Shown here in pieces: positions 8,183-62,038 of a stretch of 64,000 nt of DNA. The translations under genes were made by a program, and so were the position numbers. The stretch covers positions 124,001 to 188,000 of the forward strand of contig NZ_ML636800.1 of NCBI RefSeq assembly GCF_006476605.1. Direction: 5' to 3'. The notes below the pieces were generated by a model. The model was not told the DNA's origin. It saw only the letters and a program-made list of their open reading frames with translations, and ran no database searches. Source of the DNA: Brucella gallinifaecis (GTDB lineage Bacteria; Pseudomonadota; Alphaproteobacteria; Rhizobiales; Rhizobiaceae). The first letter of the stretch is position 1. Each line of letters begins with the position of its first letter.

Positions 8183-9480
8183 TACAGCCCTTTAGCCTTT
8201 TCTTCGATTGCTGCCGTTACGATATCAATATTGGCATCACTCGGGTCCTGAAGAAAGCGCTGCAATTGAACACGATATTCGTCACCAAGATCACCCGGCA
8301 GGCTGTCGCCCAGCACAAAAGCCGCTTCGGCACCAGACACAAAGCTATTGGAGGCCTGCACTGCGGGAAGATATAGTGTTGTGTCCGTGGCCTTGGACGG
8401 AGATGCCAGTCCTGCCTTGGCAATAATTGCGCTGCCTTCTTCGCTGAGTGTAAAATCTATGAAAGCATCGGCAGTTTCAGGATTGCTTCCGGTAGAAAGC
8501 GAAACAAATTCCTTGGCATCTACGCTGGTGGCATTGTCGTGACCAAGCCCCATGGCCGGGAATTGGAACAACCCATATTGCGAAGGATCCAGCTTATAAA
8601 TAGAATCTGCACGGTTAGAGACCCACATTCCCATCTGGAACATGCCGCCCGTACCTTCTTTTAGCACTTTATCGGCAGCATTATCCCATTCCATGCCCAG
8701 CATGGTAGAAACATCGCCGCAACAACCAGCATCCAGCAATTCACGCCATTTACGCAATGCGGCCTTTACGTTCTCGTCGGTCCAGGGCACTTCATGCGCG
8801 GCTAGTTTTTTAGAAAAATCTGCACCGGCTTGACGCAAAAGAAGTGTTTCAAAAACCTCTGCATGTGCCCAGAATTTGGCTGGGATTACCCATGCTGTGA
8901 CGCCAGAGGCATTGAGCTTTTGAATCGAATCCAGAAGTCCGGCCCAATCTTGCGGAACATTTTCAATGCCAGCTTTTTTGAAAGTCTCTTTATTGTACCA
9001 AAGTCCGCTACGATCGCCATACGAGAAGGTTATACCGTAAAGATCTCCTGAGACTGTACCGAGATCTTTCCAGGTGGAATCCAGTTTATCATTCCATTTC
9101 ATAGCGTCATATGACTTGCTCATAGGGCGCAATAAACCAGCATCAACAAGCTCAGAACGGAATGAAGGCCAGGTATTCACCATCAGGTCAGCGCTTTCAC
9201 CGCCCAATAAAGCTGTCCGCAGGCCGCCTCTGGGATCGCCGGACCATGTAACCGGAATTTCTTTTACCGTAACATCCGGGTATTTTTCCGTGAAGGCTTT
9301 CTGAAGTGCACGAACCGTATCGAGATCTGAGCCAGACATCCATTGAAGAATGACAAGTTCACCTTCCGGCTGAGCATGTGCAGCAACCGAACTTGCAAGC
9401 AAGATCGCCAAACTGCTCGCTATCAGATTTTTACCGCGCGGATTAGCAGACAAACTGCGGACTACGCTGCTTATATTCAT
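8179..9480 (-). CDS. Extracellular (periplasmic) sugar-binding protein, ABC transporter
   Basis: A 433-residue solute-binding protein of the CUT1/MalE-like family. A signal peptide is evident (basic start, hydrophobic LIASSLAILLASSVAAHAQ, cleavage likely after AHA near residue 36). The mature part starts EGELVILQWMSGSDLDTVRALQKAF, the usual first strand and helix of these proteins. It is the first gene of the operon. Its Shine-Dalgarno GGGAGGAGG (9487-9495 on the minus strand) is 6 bases from ATG and unusually strong; it is fully complementary to the CCUCCUCCC loops of RNAs encoded elsewhere in the window. The ligand is inferred to be a fucosylated or related sugar from the fucosidase in the same operon. 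Confidence 0.93.
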   Translation of the reverse strand: MNISSVVRSLSANPRGKNLIASSLAILLASSVAAHAQPEGELVILQWMSGSDLDTVRALQKAFTEKYPDVTVKEIPVTWSGDPRGGLRTALLGGESADLMVNTWPSFRSELVDAGLLRPMSKSYDAMKWNDKLDSTWKDLGTVSGDLYGITFSYGDRSGLWYNKETFKKAGIENVPQDWAGLLDSIQKLNASGVTAWVIPAKFWAHAEVFETLLLRQAGADFSKKLAAHEVPWTDENVKAALRKWRELLDAGCCGDVSTMLGMEWDNAADKVLKEGTGGMFQMGMWVSNRADSIYKLDPSQYGLFQFPAMGLGHDNATSVDAKEFVSLSTGSNPETADAFIDFTLSEEGSAIIAKAGLASPSKATDTTLYLPAVQASNSFVSGAEAAFVLGDSLPGDLGDEYRVQLQRFLQDPSDANIDIVTAAIEEKAKGLY

Positions 9481-9512
9481 CGGGTTCCTCCTCCCATGAG
9501 CTATTTATATAA

Positions 9513-23400: not shown

Positions 23401-23664
23401 GCGTGGACTTCTGTAGGTTACATGTGAGGCGGCGAAATGCTTCCGGATAGAGGTAGCAGAGCCAATCCTGTCAAAGGTTAGAATTTCAGTCCCAACGCTT
23501 TTAGGGAAAGTCCAGTTTTCATCTTAATCAAATTTACGACAAGCGCCTACCTTGATAAACTGCTCGTTTTACTTGATTGGCTATATTCGTAAAAAGTCTA
23601 CAGTGAATCTAACCGCTTCTAATAAATCCCGGCTATCGCTTGACGCATGGAAAGTCAGAACGTA
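23401..23664. other. Degenerate region between IS remnant and cobalamin riboswitch
   Basis: No open frame could be assigned. The first 80 bases may hold further decayed transposase sequence on the minus strand; the rest must include the promoter for the riboswitch transcript. No clear consensus promoter was found. Confidence 0.4.
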
Positions 23665-23885
23665 ATGGTGTTACGACGGTTCCCCAACCGAGAGCGAAGG
23701 GGATTAATAGGGAACACGGTGAGGACGACCCAAAAGGGACTGAGACCGTGGCTGCCCCCGCAACTGTAAGCGGATTGCCGTTCATCCTTGTGACGTTGAA
23801 ACGTCATGTCACTGAGCTTGTCAAAGTTCGGGAAGGCAGATGAACAGCGGATATTCGTAAGCCAGGAGACCTGCCGTCTAACGTA
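23665..23885 (+). ncRNA. Cobalamin (B12) riboswitch
   Basis: All the core pieces are present in order: GGGAACACGGTGAGG near 23710, the highly conserved GGCTGCCCCCGCAACTGTAA at about 23750-23769, and GCCAGGAGACCTGCCGTC at 23861-23878, whose end pairs with GACGG at 23675. Adenosylcobalamin binding is expected to lower expression of the downstream transport genes. A short leader frame and a weak terminator-like hairpin follow at 23928-24026. Confidence 0.95.
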
Positions 23886-23927
23886 GTCCATTGTCACGGG
23901 CGGGGATGCCCGGAGCAGGAGTTGGTT

Positions 23928-56076: not shown

Positions 56077-56466
56077 ATGACGGTTTTAAAACATCTGCTG
56101 CCTGACGATATGGCAGCTCCCTTTGCTGCCTATAGCCATGGCGTGAAGATAAGCGCTGGCACTGAACTCGTGTTCTGCTCTGGTCAGCTTGGTATCGCAC
56201 CAGACGGTTCGGTGCCCGAAGATGCAGGCGAACAGGCTGCACTTTGCTTTGATAATATCCGTCGTATCCTGCGTGATGGCGCAATGGATCTTTCCAATGT
56301 TGTGCGTATCAACGCCTATGTAACGGATCGCGCTCATATGCGTGCTTATATGGACGTGCGCGACCGCTTGTTTCCGCAGCCTGCACCGGCTTCGACGCTG
56401 ATGATTGTTTCCGGTTTTACGCGCGAAGAATTTAAAGTCGAAATTGAGGTTGTAGCAGCTAAATAG
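56077..56466 (+). CDS. RidA family (YjgF/RutC-like) protein
   Basis: A 129-residue protein of the RidA/RutC fold. The family motifs SGQLGIAPDGSVPEDAGEQAALCFDNI and VRINAYVTDRAHMRAYMDVRDRLF are clear; the acid-side strand MIVSGFTREEFKVEIEVVAA ends the chain. The Arg usually used in RidA deaminases at the dimer interface appears not to be in its common context, so it may be a RutC-like relative. It starts 9 bases after the reductase stop and is co-transcribed. RidA proteins hydrolyse reactive enamine or imine intermediates. Confidence 0.9.
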   Translation: MTVLKHLLPDDMAAPFAAYSHGVKISAGTELVFCSGQLGIAPDGSVPEDAGEQAALCFDNIRRILRDGAMDLSNVVRINAYVTDRAHMRAYMDVRDRLFPQPAPASTLMIVSGFTREEFKVEIEVVAAK

Positions 56467-56492: not shown

Positions 56493-56615
56493 AAAAAAAT
56501 AGCACCCGGCGCGGGAGGAGCGACGGGTGCCATTTAGGGGAAGACCGAAATGGGAGGAGGAATTTCGGTCTTTATATCACCGAGGAGAATGGGAGGAGGA
56601 AATACCCCGGTGAAA
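56493..56615 (-). ncRNA. Three-hairpin small RNA with CCUCCUCCC loops (ar14/CcsR-like)
   Basis: Read on the minus strand, three stem-loops follow one another: 56612-56578, 56572-56541, and 56530-56501. Their loops contain CCTCCTCCC (56599-56591 and 56560-56552) and CTCCTCCC (56520-56513). The third is a rho-independent terminator followed by a 7-base T-run (56499-56493). Loops of this kind are complementary to Shine-Dalgarno sequences. The layout matches rhizobial ar14 RNAs and Rhodobacter CcsR RNAs. It lies about 75 bases downstream of the DUF1127 gene on the same strand, so processing from that mRNA is likely. Confidence 0.8.
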
Positions 56616-56690
56616 ACTTTGAAACTTTATAACCGCATGGATCAAGCATTGCGGTTCATGCCAAAGGCAGAAGCCTTGTGGGGCGCGCTG

Positions 56691-56837
56691 TTAGCGAGCG
56701 GCAGCCTTGCGTGCAACGAATGGAATTTCCGAAGGCATAATGCCGAGGTCGTTCAGTTCGCGTGGGCTCAGGCGGCTCAGTTCGTTTACAGTGTTACGGT
56801 AACGGCGCCAGTTGTTGTACGAGCGGATCAGGTTCAT
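56691..56837 (-). CDS. Small DUF1127 protein
   Basis: A 48-residue basic protein starting MNLIRSYNNWRRYRNTVNEL, followed by SRLSPRELNDLGIMPSEIPF. The RRYR and ELxDLGI elements are the DUF1127 hallmark. AGGTGAGAGAA precedes ATG. Small DUF1127 proteins are common in Alphaproteobacteria, often stress-linked and thought to bind RNA; in Rhodobacter one (CcaF1) is co-transcribed with CCUCCUCCC RNAs. The same order, DUF1127 gene and then hairpins with that loop, is found here, so the two are probably one transcription unit. The gene is convergent to RidA and divergent from gcvT. Confidence 0.88.
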   Translation of the reverse strand: MNLIRSYNNWRRYRNTVNELSRLSPRELNDLGIMPSEIPFVARKAAAR

Positions 56838-57150
56838 TTCTCTCACCTAGTCAAAAATCAAATCTCTTTGTTACCCACAGCATATAGGCTTGAAGGATCG
56901 GGAAGTGGAGAGACAGATTTGCATAGCTGCTGTGCAATTAAGATCGATAATTGCATGTATTTTGCGCAGTTCGGCCATTTTAAAATCACAATCATGATTA
57001 TAGTTGGCAGACAGCTCATTTTTTAAGTTGAATTTCTTGTCGTAAAAAACCGTTAAATTGTCGGCTACAGGCGATAATTCGGGATGACTCATGGGCTGGT
57101 TTCCTTTATGTGACTTATGTCGAGCGTCGAAGCATAATGCTTTTGCGTAG

Positions 57151-57322
57151 TCTGTCTGCGGGAGAGTGCCATTTGGCCGCCGAAGGGGAAATCGCCCGAA
57201 ATCTCTCAGGTACAATGAACCGCAGACAGGGAAGGCAACTCTGGAAAGTCAGGGGAAACCCTGCGCCGAAGGTGTAAGTATAGCTTTATGGCTATGCGAG
57301 TCTCTCAGGCTTGAGACAGAGG
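57151..57322 (+). ncRNA. Tandem glycine riboswitch
   Basis: Two aptamers are visible. The first spans about 57152-57229 and contains GGGAGAGTGCC, GCCGAAGGGGAAATCGCCCG and TCTCTCAGGTAC, closed by TCTGCGG/CCGCAGA. The second spans about 57237-57322 with CTCTGGAAAGTC, GCGCCGAAGGTGTAAGT and TCTCTCAGGCTTGAGACAGAG. Glycine binding is expected to raise gcvTHP expression. Confidence 0.95.
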
Positions 57323-61925: not shown

Positions 61926-62038
61926 AAAAAAAGAGCCGGACTAAAAAGTCCGGCCAAGTTATGAAGGTGCCATAAAGGCTAACCTCCAGAGGGGAACACC
62001 TACCGCGCGCAATGGGAGGAGGCGCAAGCGGTAAGCAC
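61926..62038 (-). ncRNA. Small RNA with CCUCCUCCC loop and intrinsic terminator
   Basis: On the minus strand the RNA would begin near 62038. Its first hairpin (62033-62001, stem TACCGC/GCGGTA with inner GCGC) exposes CCTCCTCCC (62022-62014). A middle part TCTGGAGGTTAGCC follows, and a terminator stem GCCGGACT / AGTCCGGC with a T-run (61932-61926) ends it. Length is about 113 bases. The motif is shared with the RNA at 56493-56615, the rest is not. It has its own promoter and no DUF1127 gene upstream. Confidence 0.75.

What the first reader, a model, noticed from the sequence alone, without database searches (positions are those of the whole stretch)
56493..56837. DUF1127 gene followed by a three-hairpin RNA with repeated CCUCCUCCC loops
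Directly seen: a 48-codon DUF1127 gene and, about 75 bases downstream on the same strand, three consecutive stem-loops whose loops carry CCUCCUCCC, CCUCCUCCC and CUCCUCCC, the last followed by a T-run. Known families: rhizobial ar14 RNAs (e.g. NfeR1) and Rhodobacter CcsR RNAs carry this loop; in Rhodobacter the CcsR RNAs are processed from an mRNA encoding a DUF1127 protein. Inference: this is the Brucellaceae form of the same protein-plus-RNA unit, acting by blocking Shine-Dalgarno sites.
Basis: partly seen in the sequence, partly recalled or inferred. Interest (0 to 1): 0.75.

Follow-up and report, generated by a model that had tools for sequence, protein, structure and literature searches.

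The report
Small-protein gene with a regulatory-RNA tail
A tiny gene for a 48-residue protein is followed, probably on the same transcript, by a known kind of small regulatory RNA whose three loops could stick to the ribosome landing sites of other messages; the pairing is already known in related bacteria, but its switch region resembles that of a well-studied regulator and raises a testable question about what that regulator really controls.

Summary
A 48-aa DUF1127 gene (56691-56837, minus strand; Pfam E 1.6e-15) is followed 72 nt later by an Rfam ar14 sRNA (56497-56618; 81.5 bits, cut-off 58.8): three hairpins, anti-Shine-Dalgarno loops, T-run. It folds far better than shuffles (z -7.6) and its stems covary across 25 sequences. 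DUF1127 plus such an RNA is a published arrangement ('CIN1 locus', cited in PMC10253847), so this is a new member of a known kind. In 20 genomes 26 of 76 ar14 copies lie within 200 nt downstream of a DUF1127 domain; 0.008 expected. Added here: the published box of the LysR regulator VtlR/LsrB and a CTATAT -10 stand upstream of DUF1127 in 25 of 25 sequences; none was found between gene and RNA. VtlR is reported to activate DUF1127 genes in Brucella, and LsrB the ar14 RNA NfeR1 in Sinorhizobium, so both may feed one regulon. The box also precedes DUF1127 genes without ar14. Whether protein, RNA or both do the work is open; no transcript data were used.

The parts
56921..56933 (-). VtlR/LsrB-type box: ACAGCAGCTATGC, reverse complement of the published GCAT-N3-TG-N3-T
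   Evidence: 25 of 25 promoters of this locus; consensus from passages of PMC7486931; overlapping exact 13-mer at 56918-56930
56882..56887 (-). CTATAT, candidate -10 element, 46 nt from the box start
   Evidence: 25 of 25; spacing 46 nt in 24 and 44 nt in 1; CTATAT is the NfeR1 -10 given in PMC10746234 (passages). The generic sigma-70 scan did not flag it
56691..56837 (-). DUF1127 gene, 48 aa (coordinates include stop)
   Evidence: PF06568, E 1.6e-15; compared with the window, 24 relatives together show 197 base differences in synonymous and 48 in non-synonymous codons
56664..56677 (-). spacer stem-loop S1 (AAGGC-TTCT-GCCTT), no anti-SD motif
   Evidence: folds; a similar stem in many but not all relatives
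56631..56656 (-). spacer stem-loop S2 (AACCGCA..TGCGGTT), no anti-SD motif
   Evidence: same stem in 23 of 25, with A-T/G-C exchange; no stem in L062 (16-nt spacer), a different one in L063. In the window alone the spacer region folds no better than shuffles (z 0.06)
56497..56618 (-). ar14 sRNA (RF02344), whole model
   Evidence: 81.5 bits, cut-off 58.8
56577..56613 (-). hairpin 1, loop CCUCCUCCC (56591-56599)
   Evidence: 100% of cells paired
56541..56572 (-). hairpin 2, loop CCUCCUCCC (56552-56560)
   Evidence: 88.4% paired
56497..56535 (-). hairpin 3 / terminator stem, loop CUCCUCCC (56513-56520)
   Evidence: 95.7% paired
56493..56499 (-). T-run after hairpin 3 (Rho-independent terminator-like)
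   Evidence: The generic terminator scan did not flag it

Best explanation
The locus is a protein-plus-sRNA transcription unit. A LysR-type regulator of the VtlR/LsrB kind turns on one promoter upstream of the DUF1127 gene; RNA polymerase reads through the DUF1127 frame into the ar14 RNA and stops at its third hairpin. The about 125-nt 3' part is released from the transcript (in Rhodobacter, by RNase E with help of the DUF1127 protein CcaF1) and acts in trans: its three exposed CCUCCUCCC-type loops pair with Shine-Dalgarno regions of several mRNAs, probably of transport and carbon-use genes, and lower their translation. The DUF1127 peptide is made too. Shown here: both parts, their linkage, structure and covariation, the conserved upstream promoter region, and that no promoter was recognised in the spacer. 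Inferred: read-through, processing, VtlR/LsrB binding at this site, targets. Known only from homologues: anti-SD repression, processing by RNase E and CcaF1, activation by VtlR/LsrB.
For: ar14 and DUF1127 models. Fold z -7.58 and covariation. Linkage: 26 of 76 ar14 within 200 nt downstream of a DUF1127 domain on the same strand, 0.008 expected, in 15 of 20 genomes; 0 pairs on opposite strands within 1 kb. In 17 of those 26 the ar14 model starts 27-43 nt after the DUF1127 Pfam domain, about where the frame ends, so there is no room for a promoter between gene and RNA (first loop motif often 23-36 nt after the frame's end). Published box plus CTATAT at near-fixed spacing upstream of DUF1127 in 25 of 25; that promoter block is more conserved than DNA further upstream (0.81 against 0.53 mean share of the commonest letter). 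Published box upstream of DUF1127-ar14 units in 19 of 37 (shuffle mean 2.3, max 7) and of stand-alone ar14 genes in 13 of 31 above cut-off (shuffle mean 0.64, max 5), 0 of 8 below it. Of this genome's two AbcR-type (ar15) copies, the C2 copy has the box and the window's copy does not, like the report that VtlR activates abcR2 but not abcR1 in B. abortus (PMC7486931, passages). GGGAGGAG 3-11 nt before an ATG: 14 places in the genome against 3 for the backward control; 3 of the 14 are the antisense of ar14 copies and 1 opens only a 21-aa frame; the other 10 include two solute-binding proteins, an ABC ATPase and an FGGY sugar kinase.
Against: No transcript, 5'-end or processing data. A promoter inside the DUF1127 frame is not excluded. 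The box also precedes DUF1127 genes without adjacent ar14 (published box 12 of 30, core 13 of 30), among them one in the window's own genome (L008), so it marks the small-protein family as much as the RNA. 18 of 31 stand-alone ar14 and 18 of 37 units lack the strict published box. In a scan of 13-mers like the box, allowing one mismatch, the genome has 38 matches and the backward control 36. A sigma-70-like site lies elsewhere, at 56997-57026 (1.0 expected by chance). The best candidate target in the window (solute-binding gene, start near 9480) has no close homologue in the 29 other genomes of the genus searched (best-scoring match 27% identity), so it gives no comparative support; three ABC genes of ten is not shown to exceed their share of the genome. 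Whether this genome has a VtlR/LsrB protein was not tested. Papers differ on AbcR control: PMC8844928 says AbcR1 is under VtlR in B. abortus, and PMC7486931 found no LsrB control of AbcR in S. meliloti while PMC10746234 cites an LsrB site in its AbcR1 promoter.
Confidence: 0.72

Rival explanations
1. The ar14 RNA has its own promoter, in the spacer or inside the DUF1127 frame, and is only a neighbour of the DUF1127 gene, as NfeR1 is a gene with its own promoter in Sinorhizobium.
For: NfeR1 has its own LsrB/NtrC-controlled promoter, and NfeR1-homologue promoters from Brucella were part of a published alignment with that signature (PMC10746234, passages; which Brucella copies is not said there). 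39 of 76 ar14 in 20 genomes have no DUF1127 within 1 kb on the same strand.
Against: No sigma-70-like site (a weak scan) and no VtlR/LsrB box in the spacer; spacer length runs from 16 to 139 nt among relatives while the upstream promoter is fixed; in many genera the RNA starts at the DUF1127 stop codon.
Confidence: 0.15
2. The hairpins are only the 3' UTR of the DUF1127 mRNA: terminator and decay block, no trans action.
For: Last hairpin with T-run; further stem-loops in the spacer; the DUF1127 protein is strongly constrained, and such proteins act by protein contact in Agrobacterium (PMC12501420, passages).
Against: Anti-SD loops mostly kept while stems drift (15 of 25 keep three exact CTCCTCCC, 9 two, 1 one); the same RNA occurs without DUF1127 and behind phasin genes; homologue NfeR1 depends on these loops for translation inhibition (PMC8844928, passages).
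Confidence: 0.08
3. The loops act mainly in cis, folding back on the DUF1127 ribosome site to limit its own translation.
For: Computed loop-leader pairing is -8.2 kcal/mol for the window copy, stronger than the median of its class (-4.5) and of other gene starts (-4.8), and -13.1 for the own copy L004 with GAGGAG before the start.
Against: Over 37 DUF1127 leaders with ar14 pairing is weaker than over 30 without (median -4.5 against -7.7 kcal/mol, p 7e-5, not corrected for relatedness or paralogue class), and no different from 163 other ORF starts (p 0.34; starts guessed as first ATG); ar14 also occurs without DUF1127.
Confidence: 0.05

Closest known systems
Rfam RF02344 ar14 / NfeR1 (Smr14C2) of Sinorhizobium meliloti
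   Same: Three hairpins, anti-SD loops, terminator; above the Rfam cut-off; multicopy (4 here; six in S. meliloti per PMC7143759, passages)
   Different: NfeR1 has its own LsrB/NtrC-controlled promoter (PMC10746234); here the LTTR box and -10 precede DUF1127 and a 72-nt spacer with stem-loops lies between gene and RNA
Rhodobacter ccaF1-CcsR1-4 (Rfam RF02791 CcsR1)
   Same: DUF1127 gene followed on one strand by RNAs with anti-SD loops
   Different: Four RNAs and an RpoHI/RpoHII promoter there (PMC10253847, passages); one three-hairpin RNA here; CcsR1 model 27.4 bits, below the 65.3 cut-off
CIN1 locus / cuckoo RNAs (Reinkensmeier and Giegerich 2015)
   Same: Short DUF1127 gene associated with CcsR-like RNA, said to be often found in Alphaproteobacteria (as cited in PMC10253847)
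   Different: The original is not held, so whether it lists Brucella/Ochrobactrum members, a VtlR box or spacer stems could not be checked
VtlR-activated DUF1127 genes of Brucella (BAB1_0914, BAB2_0512, BAB2_0574) and atu1667 of Agrobacterium
   Same: DUF1127 genes activated by VtlR (PMC12595884, passages); PMC7486931 leaves open whether atu1667 acts as protein or RNA (passages). That the window gene is the BAB2_0512 orthologue is recalled from its place near gcvT and untested
   Different: The passages read treat these as small-protein genes (atu1667 also as a putative sRNA) and mention no ar14 RNA behind them

Membership tests
Rfam ar14 (RF02344) | covariance-model score at or above 58.8 bits | tested here: met
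   81.5 bits, full model 1-123
Rfam ar14 (RF02344) | three hairpins, each loop with the CCUCCUCCC anti-SD motif | tested here: met
   third loop is CUCCUCCC, 8 of 9 letters
Rfam ar14 (RF02344) | expressed as an RNA of about 115-125 nt | not testable with these tools
   no transcript data
NfeR1 type (ar14 with its own LsrB promoter) | LTTR box and CTATAT -10 directly upstream of the RNA | tested here: not met
   no box in the spacer, no sigma-70-like site there; box and CTATAT lie upstream of DUF1127
Rhodobacter CcsR1 (RF02791) | covariance-model score at or above 65.3 bits | tested here: not met
   27.4 bits, E 1.5e-4
Rhodobacter CcsR operon | RpoHI/RpoHII promoter | not tested
   no RpoH promoter scan was run
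DUF1127 (PF06568) | Pfam score above 23.3 bits | tested here: met
   57 bits
CIN1 locus (short DUF1127 plus CcsR/ar14-like RNA) | short DUF1127 gene next to the RNA on the same strand | tested here: met
   kept in 24 of the 80 loci, namely the 23 closest and L092
VtlR/LsrB regulon | GCAT-N3-TG-N3-T box in the promoter | tested here: met
   25 of 25
VtlR/LsrB regulon | binding by, and expression dependent on, VtlR/LsrB | not testable with these tools
   reported for named Brucella and Agrobacterium DUF1127 genes, not for this one

The most novel reading that the evidence does not exclude
The conserved output of the VtlR/LsrB regulator across Rhizobiaceae/Brucellaceae is a set of anti-Shine-Dalgarno RNAs (AbcR plus ar14). 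The 'small-protein' VtlR targets of Brucella-type genomes are in large part carriers of ar14 RNAs in their 3' ends, so phenotypes assigned to the DUF1127 proteins may belong wholly or partly to the RNAs; ar14 has become attached to several host genes (DUF1127, phasin) as a movable 3'-end regulator.
Probability: 0.45. Interest if true: 0.65.

Novelty: new member of a known kind. Interest (0 to 1): 0.42.

Why it matters
Two lines of work meet here. In Brucella, VtlR targets are discussed as small DUF1127 proteins, and for the Agrobacterium gene atu1667 the authors say it is unknown whether it acts as protein or RNA (PMC7486931, passages). In Sinorhizobium, LsrB activates the ar14 RNA NfeR1 (PMC10746234, passages). 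The anatomy shown here, one promoter region with the VtlR/LsrB box in front of protein and RNA together, makes the question of which product does the work directly testable, and warns that deleting such a DUF1127 gene may also remove or uncouple an sRNA.

Tried and rejected
Chance hairpins or a misread motif: rejected. CcsR1 membership by model: not met. A promoter in the spacer: none found; the fold of 56600-56700 is no better than shuffles in the window (z 0.06), although S2 recurs in relatives. Own-mRNA repression: mixed result, not excluded. Comparative support for a target: the solute-binding protein starting near window 9480 has no close homologue in the genus. A strict double CCTCCTCCC pattern over the class: 10 of 190 genomes, some with hits in the backward control too, so too strict and too unspecific to map the family. 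A LysR-type gene next to the boxed AbcR copy: none evident by reading the ORFs of the 3114 bases held (no family search was run on them); no VtlR protein search was run. The first 13-mer used for the box and the core WGCYATGCR were drawn up after seeing promoters of this genome, so only the published box is an independent test. Loci behind searches came from best-scoring hits, include paralogues, and leave out DUF1127 hits with E above 1e-3, units less than 250 nt from a locus edge, exact repeats, and loci L041-L120.

Full report
What is there. On the minus strand of the window a 48-codon gene (56837-56691) encodes a short arginine-rich protein that matches Pfam DUF1127 over almost the whole model (E 1.6e-15). 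After the stop codon come 72 nt of spacer and then an Rfam ar14 RNA at 56618-56497, 81.5 bits against a gathering score of 58.8. The three hairpins carry CCUCCUCCC, CCUCCUCCC and CUCCUCCC in their loops, and seven T follow the last stem. The RNA folds to -49.8 kcal/mol against a shuffled mean of -24.5 (z -7.58, 0 of 200 shuffles as good). The convergent neighbour is a RidA-type gene (Ribonuc_L-PSP, E 1.6e-22) that ends at 56466; on the other side, divergent, lies a glycine riboswitch at 57149-57232 before what reads as a gcvT-H-P operon (names by my reading of the ORFs, not by a family search).

Where it occurs. A scan of named genomes with the neighbouring oxidoreductase kept the best 80 of 399 relatives. 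The closest are Brucella (Ochrobactrum-type species), Ochrobactrum and Falsochrobactrum, at best 90% protein identity, so the window comes from that group; the classic Brucella species are not in the list, and the tool says records near the window's genome may be left out. 24 of the 80 loci, the 23 closest (L041-L063) and L092, carry the DUF1127 gene with anti-SD motifs behind it within about 2.3 kb of the oxidoreductase; 21 of them are titled Brucella, Ochrobactrum or Falsochrobactrum, 3 only 'Rhizobiales bacterium'. The other 56, among them one Paenochrobactrum, show no DUF1127 match in the stretch held. The window's own genome has 4 ar14 copies and 5 DUF1127 genes above the cut-off, a sixth match being below it; 3 of the 4 ar14 lie directly behind a DUF1127 gene, and 3 of the 5 DUF1127 genes have ar14 directly behind them. 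In the family, 60 of 61 genomes have ar14 at E <= 0.001.

Linkage tested. For 20 genomes of 20 genera, chosen by me from those 61, I took every DUF1127 match (91) and every ar14 match (76, of which 9 are below the ar14 cut-off). 26 of 76 ar14 have a DUF1127 domain within 200 nt upstream on the same strand, in 15 of 20 genomes; random placement predicts 0.008. Another 4 have one 201-1000 nt upstream, 7 only downstream, 39 none within 1 kb on that strand, and no pair lies on opposite strands within 1 kb. In 17 of the 26 the ar14 model begins 27-43 nt after the Pfam domain, about where the frame ends, so the RNA starts at or next to the stop codon. The window's group has a longer spacer.

Structure tested. 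On 25 RNAs of this locus (24 relatives plus the window; identity to the window 66-88%), the window's structure keeps 94.4% of cells paired, 13 of 35 pairs change on both sides (shuffled mean 5.4; slid structures 0-4), and none of 500 shuffles reaches the observed value on any of the five measures. Shuffles do not model relatedness; the slid control does, but the structure came from one of the sequences. The loop motif is not perfectly kept: by exact CTCCTCCC count 15 of 25 have three, 9 have two and 1 has one. The spacer holds a stem-loop S2, shared by 23 of 25 with an A-T to G-C exchange, and often a smaller S1; neither carries the motif.

Promoter. Upstream of DUF1127 in 25 of 25 sequences stands A-N3-CA-N3-ATGC, the reverse complement of the box GCAT-N3-TG-N3-T that PMC7486931 gives for VtlR (passages), with CTATAT 46 nt from its start (44 in one). 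CTATAT is also the -10 quoted for NfeR1 promoters; that paper mentions an earlier alignment of NfeR1-homologue promoters that included Brucella, so part of this may be in print for some ar14 copy (PMC10746234, passages). In the window's genome the published box precedes 4 of the 5 DUF1127 genes above cut-off: the three with ar14 (L001, L003, L004) and L008 without it; L007 lacks it. A 13-mer that I drew from these promoters matches 38 places with at most one mismatch, the backward control 36, so the sequence alone is not specific; 4 of the 38 lie 84-108 bases before those 4 DUF1127 domains. Beyond this group the published box lies 40-200 nt upstream of 19 of 37 DUF1127-ar14 units (shuffle mean 2.3, max 7) and 12 of 30 DUF1127 genes without adjacent ar14 (1.6, max 5) (the 37 and 30 include the own-genome ones), and 15-110 nt upstream of 13 of 31 stand-alone ar14 genes above cut-off (0.64, max 5) but of 0 of 8 below it. 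Of the two AbcR-type (ar15) copies of this genome, the one on C2 has boxes and the one in the window none, which resembles the published statement that VtlR activates abcR2 but not abcR1 in B. abortus; another paper puts AbcR1 under VtlR there (PMC8844928). The box therefore goes with the DUF1127/ar14/AbcR set, not with ar14 alone.

How it probably works. VtlR or LsrB is reported to activate three DUF1127 genes and AbcR2 in Brucella (PMC12595884, passages), atu1667 in Agrobacterium and NfeR1 in Sinorhizobium. The simplest reading is one LTTR-controlled transcript for protein and RNA, the RNA being cut from the 3' end as CcsR RNAs are from the ccaF1 transcript by RNase E with CcaF1 (PMC10253847, passages). 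The loops would then pair with SD regions: NfeR1's action depends on its three anti-SD motifs, with two transporter mRNAs validated (PMC8844928, passages), and it down-regulates ntrBC. In this genome GGGAGGAG lies 3-11 nt before an ATG in 14 places (backward control 3); 3 are the antisense of ar14 copies and one opens only a 21-aa frame; the other 10 frames match two solute-binding proteins, an ABC ATPase, an FGGY sugar kinase (glycerol kinase by my reading), a sigma-54 activator, CtaG, a histidine-kinase ATPase domain, a beta-lactamase-like protein, DUF779 and a glyoxalase-like protein. These are candidates only. The one I followed is not conserved in the genus.

Protein or RNA. The protein is under clear selection: compared with the window, 8 codons vary in amino acid and 34 synonymously among 24 relatives. 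So the DUF1127 product matters as well, in line with its protein-contact role in Agrobacterium (PMC12501420, passages). The data do not decide which product carries the VtlR phenotypes. L008, a boxed DUF1127 gene without ar14, speaks against the RNA being the sole reason for the box. Pairing of the loops with the unit's own leader is -8.2 kcal/mol in the window, so some action in cis is possible.

What is known. The three- and four-hairpin CCUCCUCCC RNAs were described in Rhizobiales (PMC3927594, passages), and the ar14 family is said to occur in Rhizobiaceae, Brucellaceae and Phyllobacteriaceae (PMC7143759, passages). PMC10253847 states that short DUF1127 genes are often found with CcsR-like RNAs in Alphaproteobacteria and that this was named CIN1 locus. 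The finding is thus a new member of a known kind. In the held library I found no paper listed with all of VtlR, NfeR1 and DUF1127 (3 papers with at least two), none with Brucella, Rfam and ar14 (a spelling with a Greek letter would be missed), and none with 'r14 family', Brucella and DUF1127 together (10 with two of the three); CIN1 locus, cuckoo RNA or BAB2_0512 gave 8. Papers that may already say more are not held: the cuckoo RNA paper, the CcaF1 paper of 2021, the Brucella fucose paper of 2018, the Agrobacterium LysR-sRNA paper of 2021, the Agrobacterium DUF1127 paper of 2020, the VtlR paper of 2015 and the CcsR paper of 2015. No claim of absence from print is made for them.

Beyond the window. 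In another family a DUF1127 gene is followed by four tandem two-hairpin CcsR-like RNAs (L193; best CcsR1 match 52.0 bits, E 1e-10, below the curated 65.3). Six of the 39 ar14 without DUF1127 (five above the ar14 cut-off, one below) lie right behind a phasin gene (Phasin_2, E 2.2e-12 or better), with the first loop motif 27-37 nt after the phasin stop codon, so ar14 sits behind at least two kinds of host gene.

Noticed in passing
   Followed up: partly
61928-62036 minus: ar15 (AbcR-type) sRNA, 61.3 bits, with one CCUCCUCCC; no VtlR box in 250 nt upstream, unlike the genome's other copy on C2.
   Followed up: partly
56631-56677 minus: Spacer stem-loops S1/S2 between DUF1127 and ar14; S2 shared by 23 of 25, function unknown, absent where the spacer is 16 nt (L062).
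   Followed up: partly
about 56970-56993 minus: A further stretch (ATTGTGAT...ATGGCC-like) some 150 nt upstream of DUF1127 is conserved in most of the 25 sequences, possibly a second regulator site.
   Followed up: no
L001 (own genome, C6): A second DUF1127-ar14 unit whose RNA region has four motif hairpins instead of three.
   Followed up: no
9478-9495: GGGAGGAGG 6 nt before the ATG of a solute-binding protein gene on the minus strand, an extended complement of the anti-SD loops.
   Followed up: partly
23660-23891 plus; 57149-57232 plus: Cobalamin riboswitch and glycine riboswitch (the latter upstream of a gcvT-like gene).
   Followed up: no
   Followed up: no
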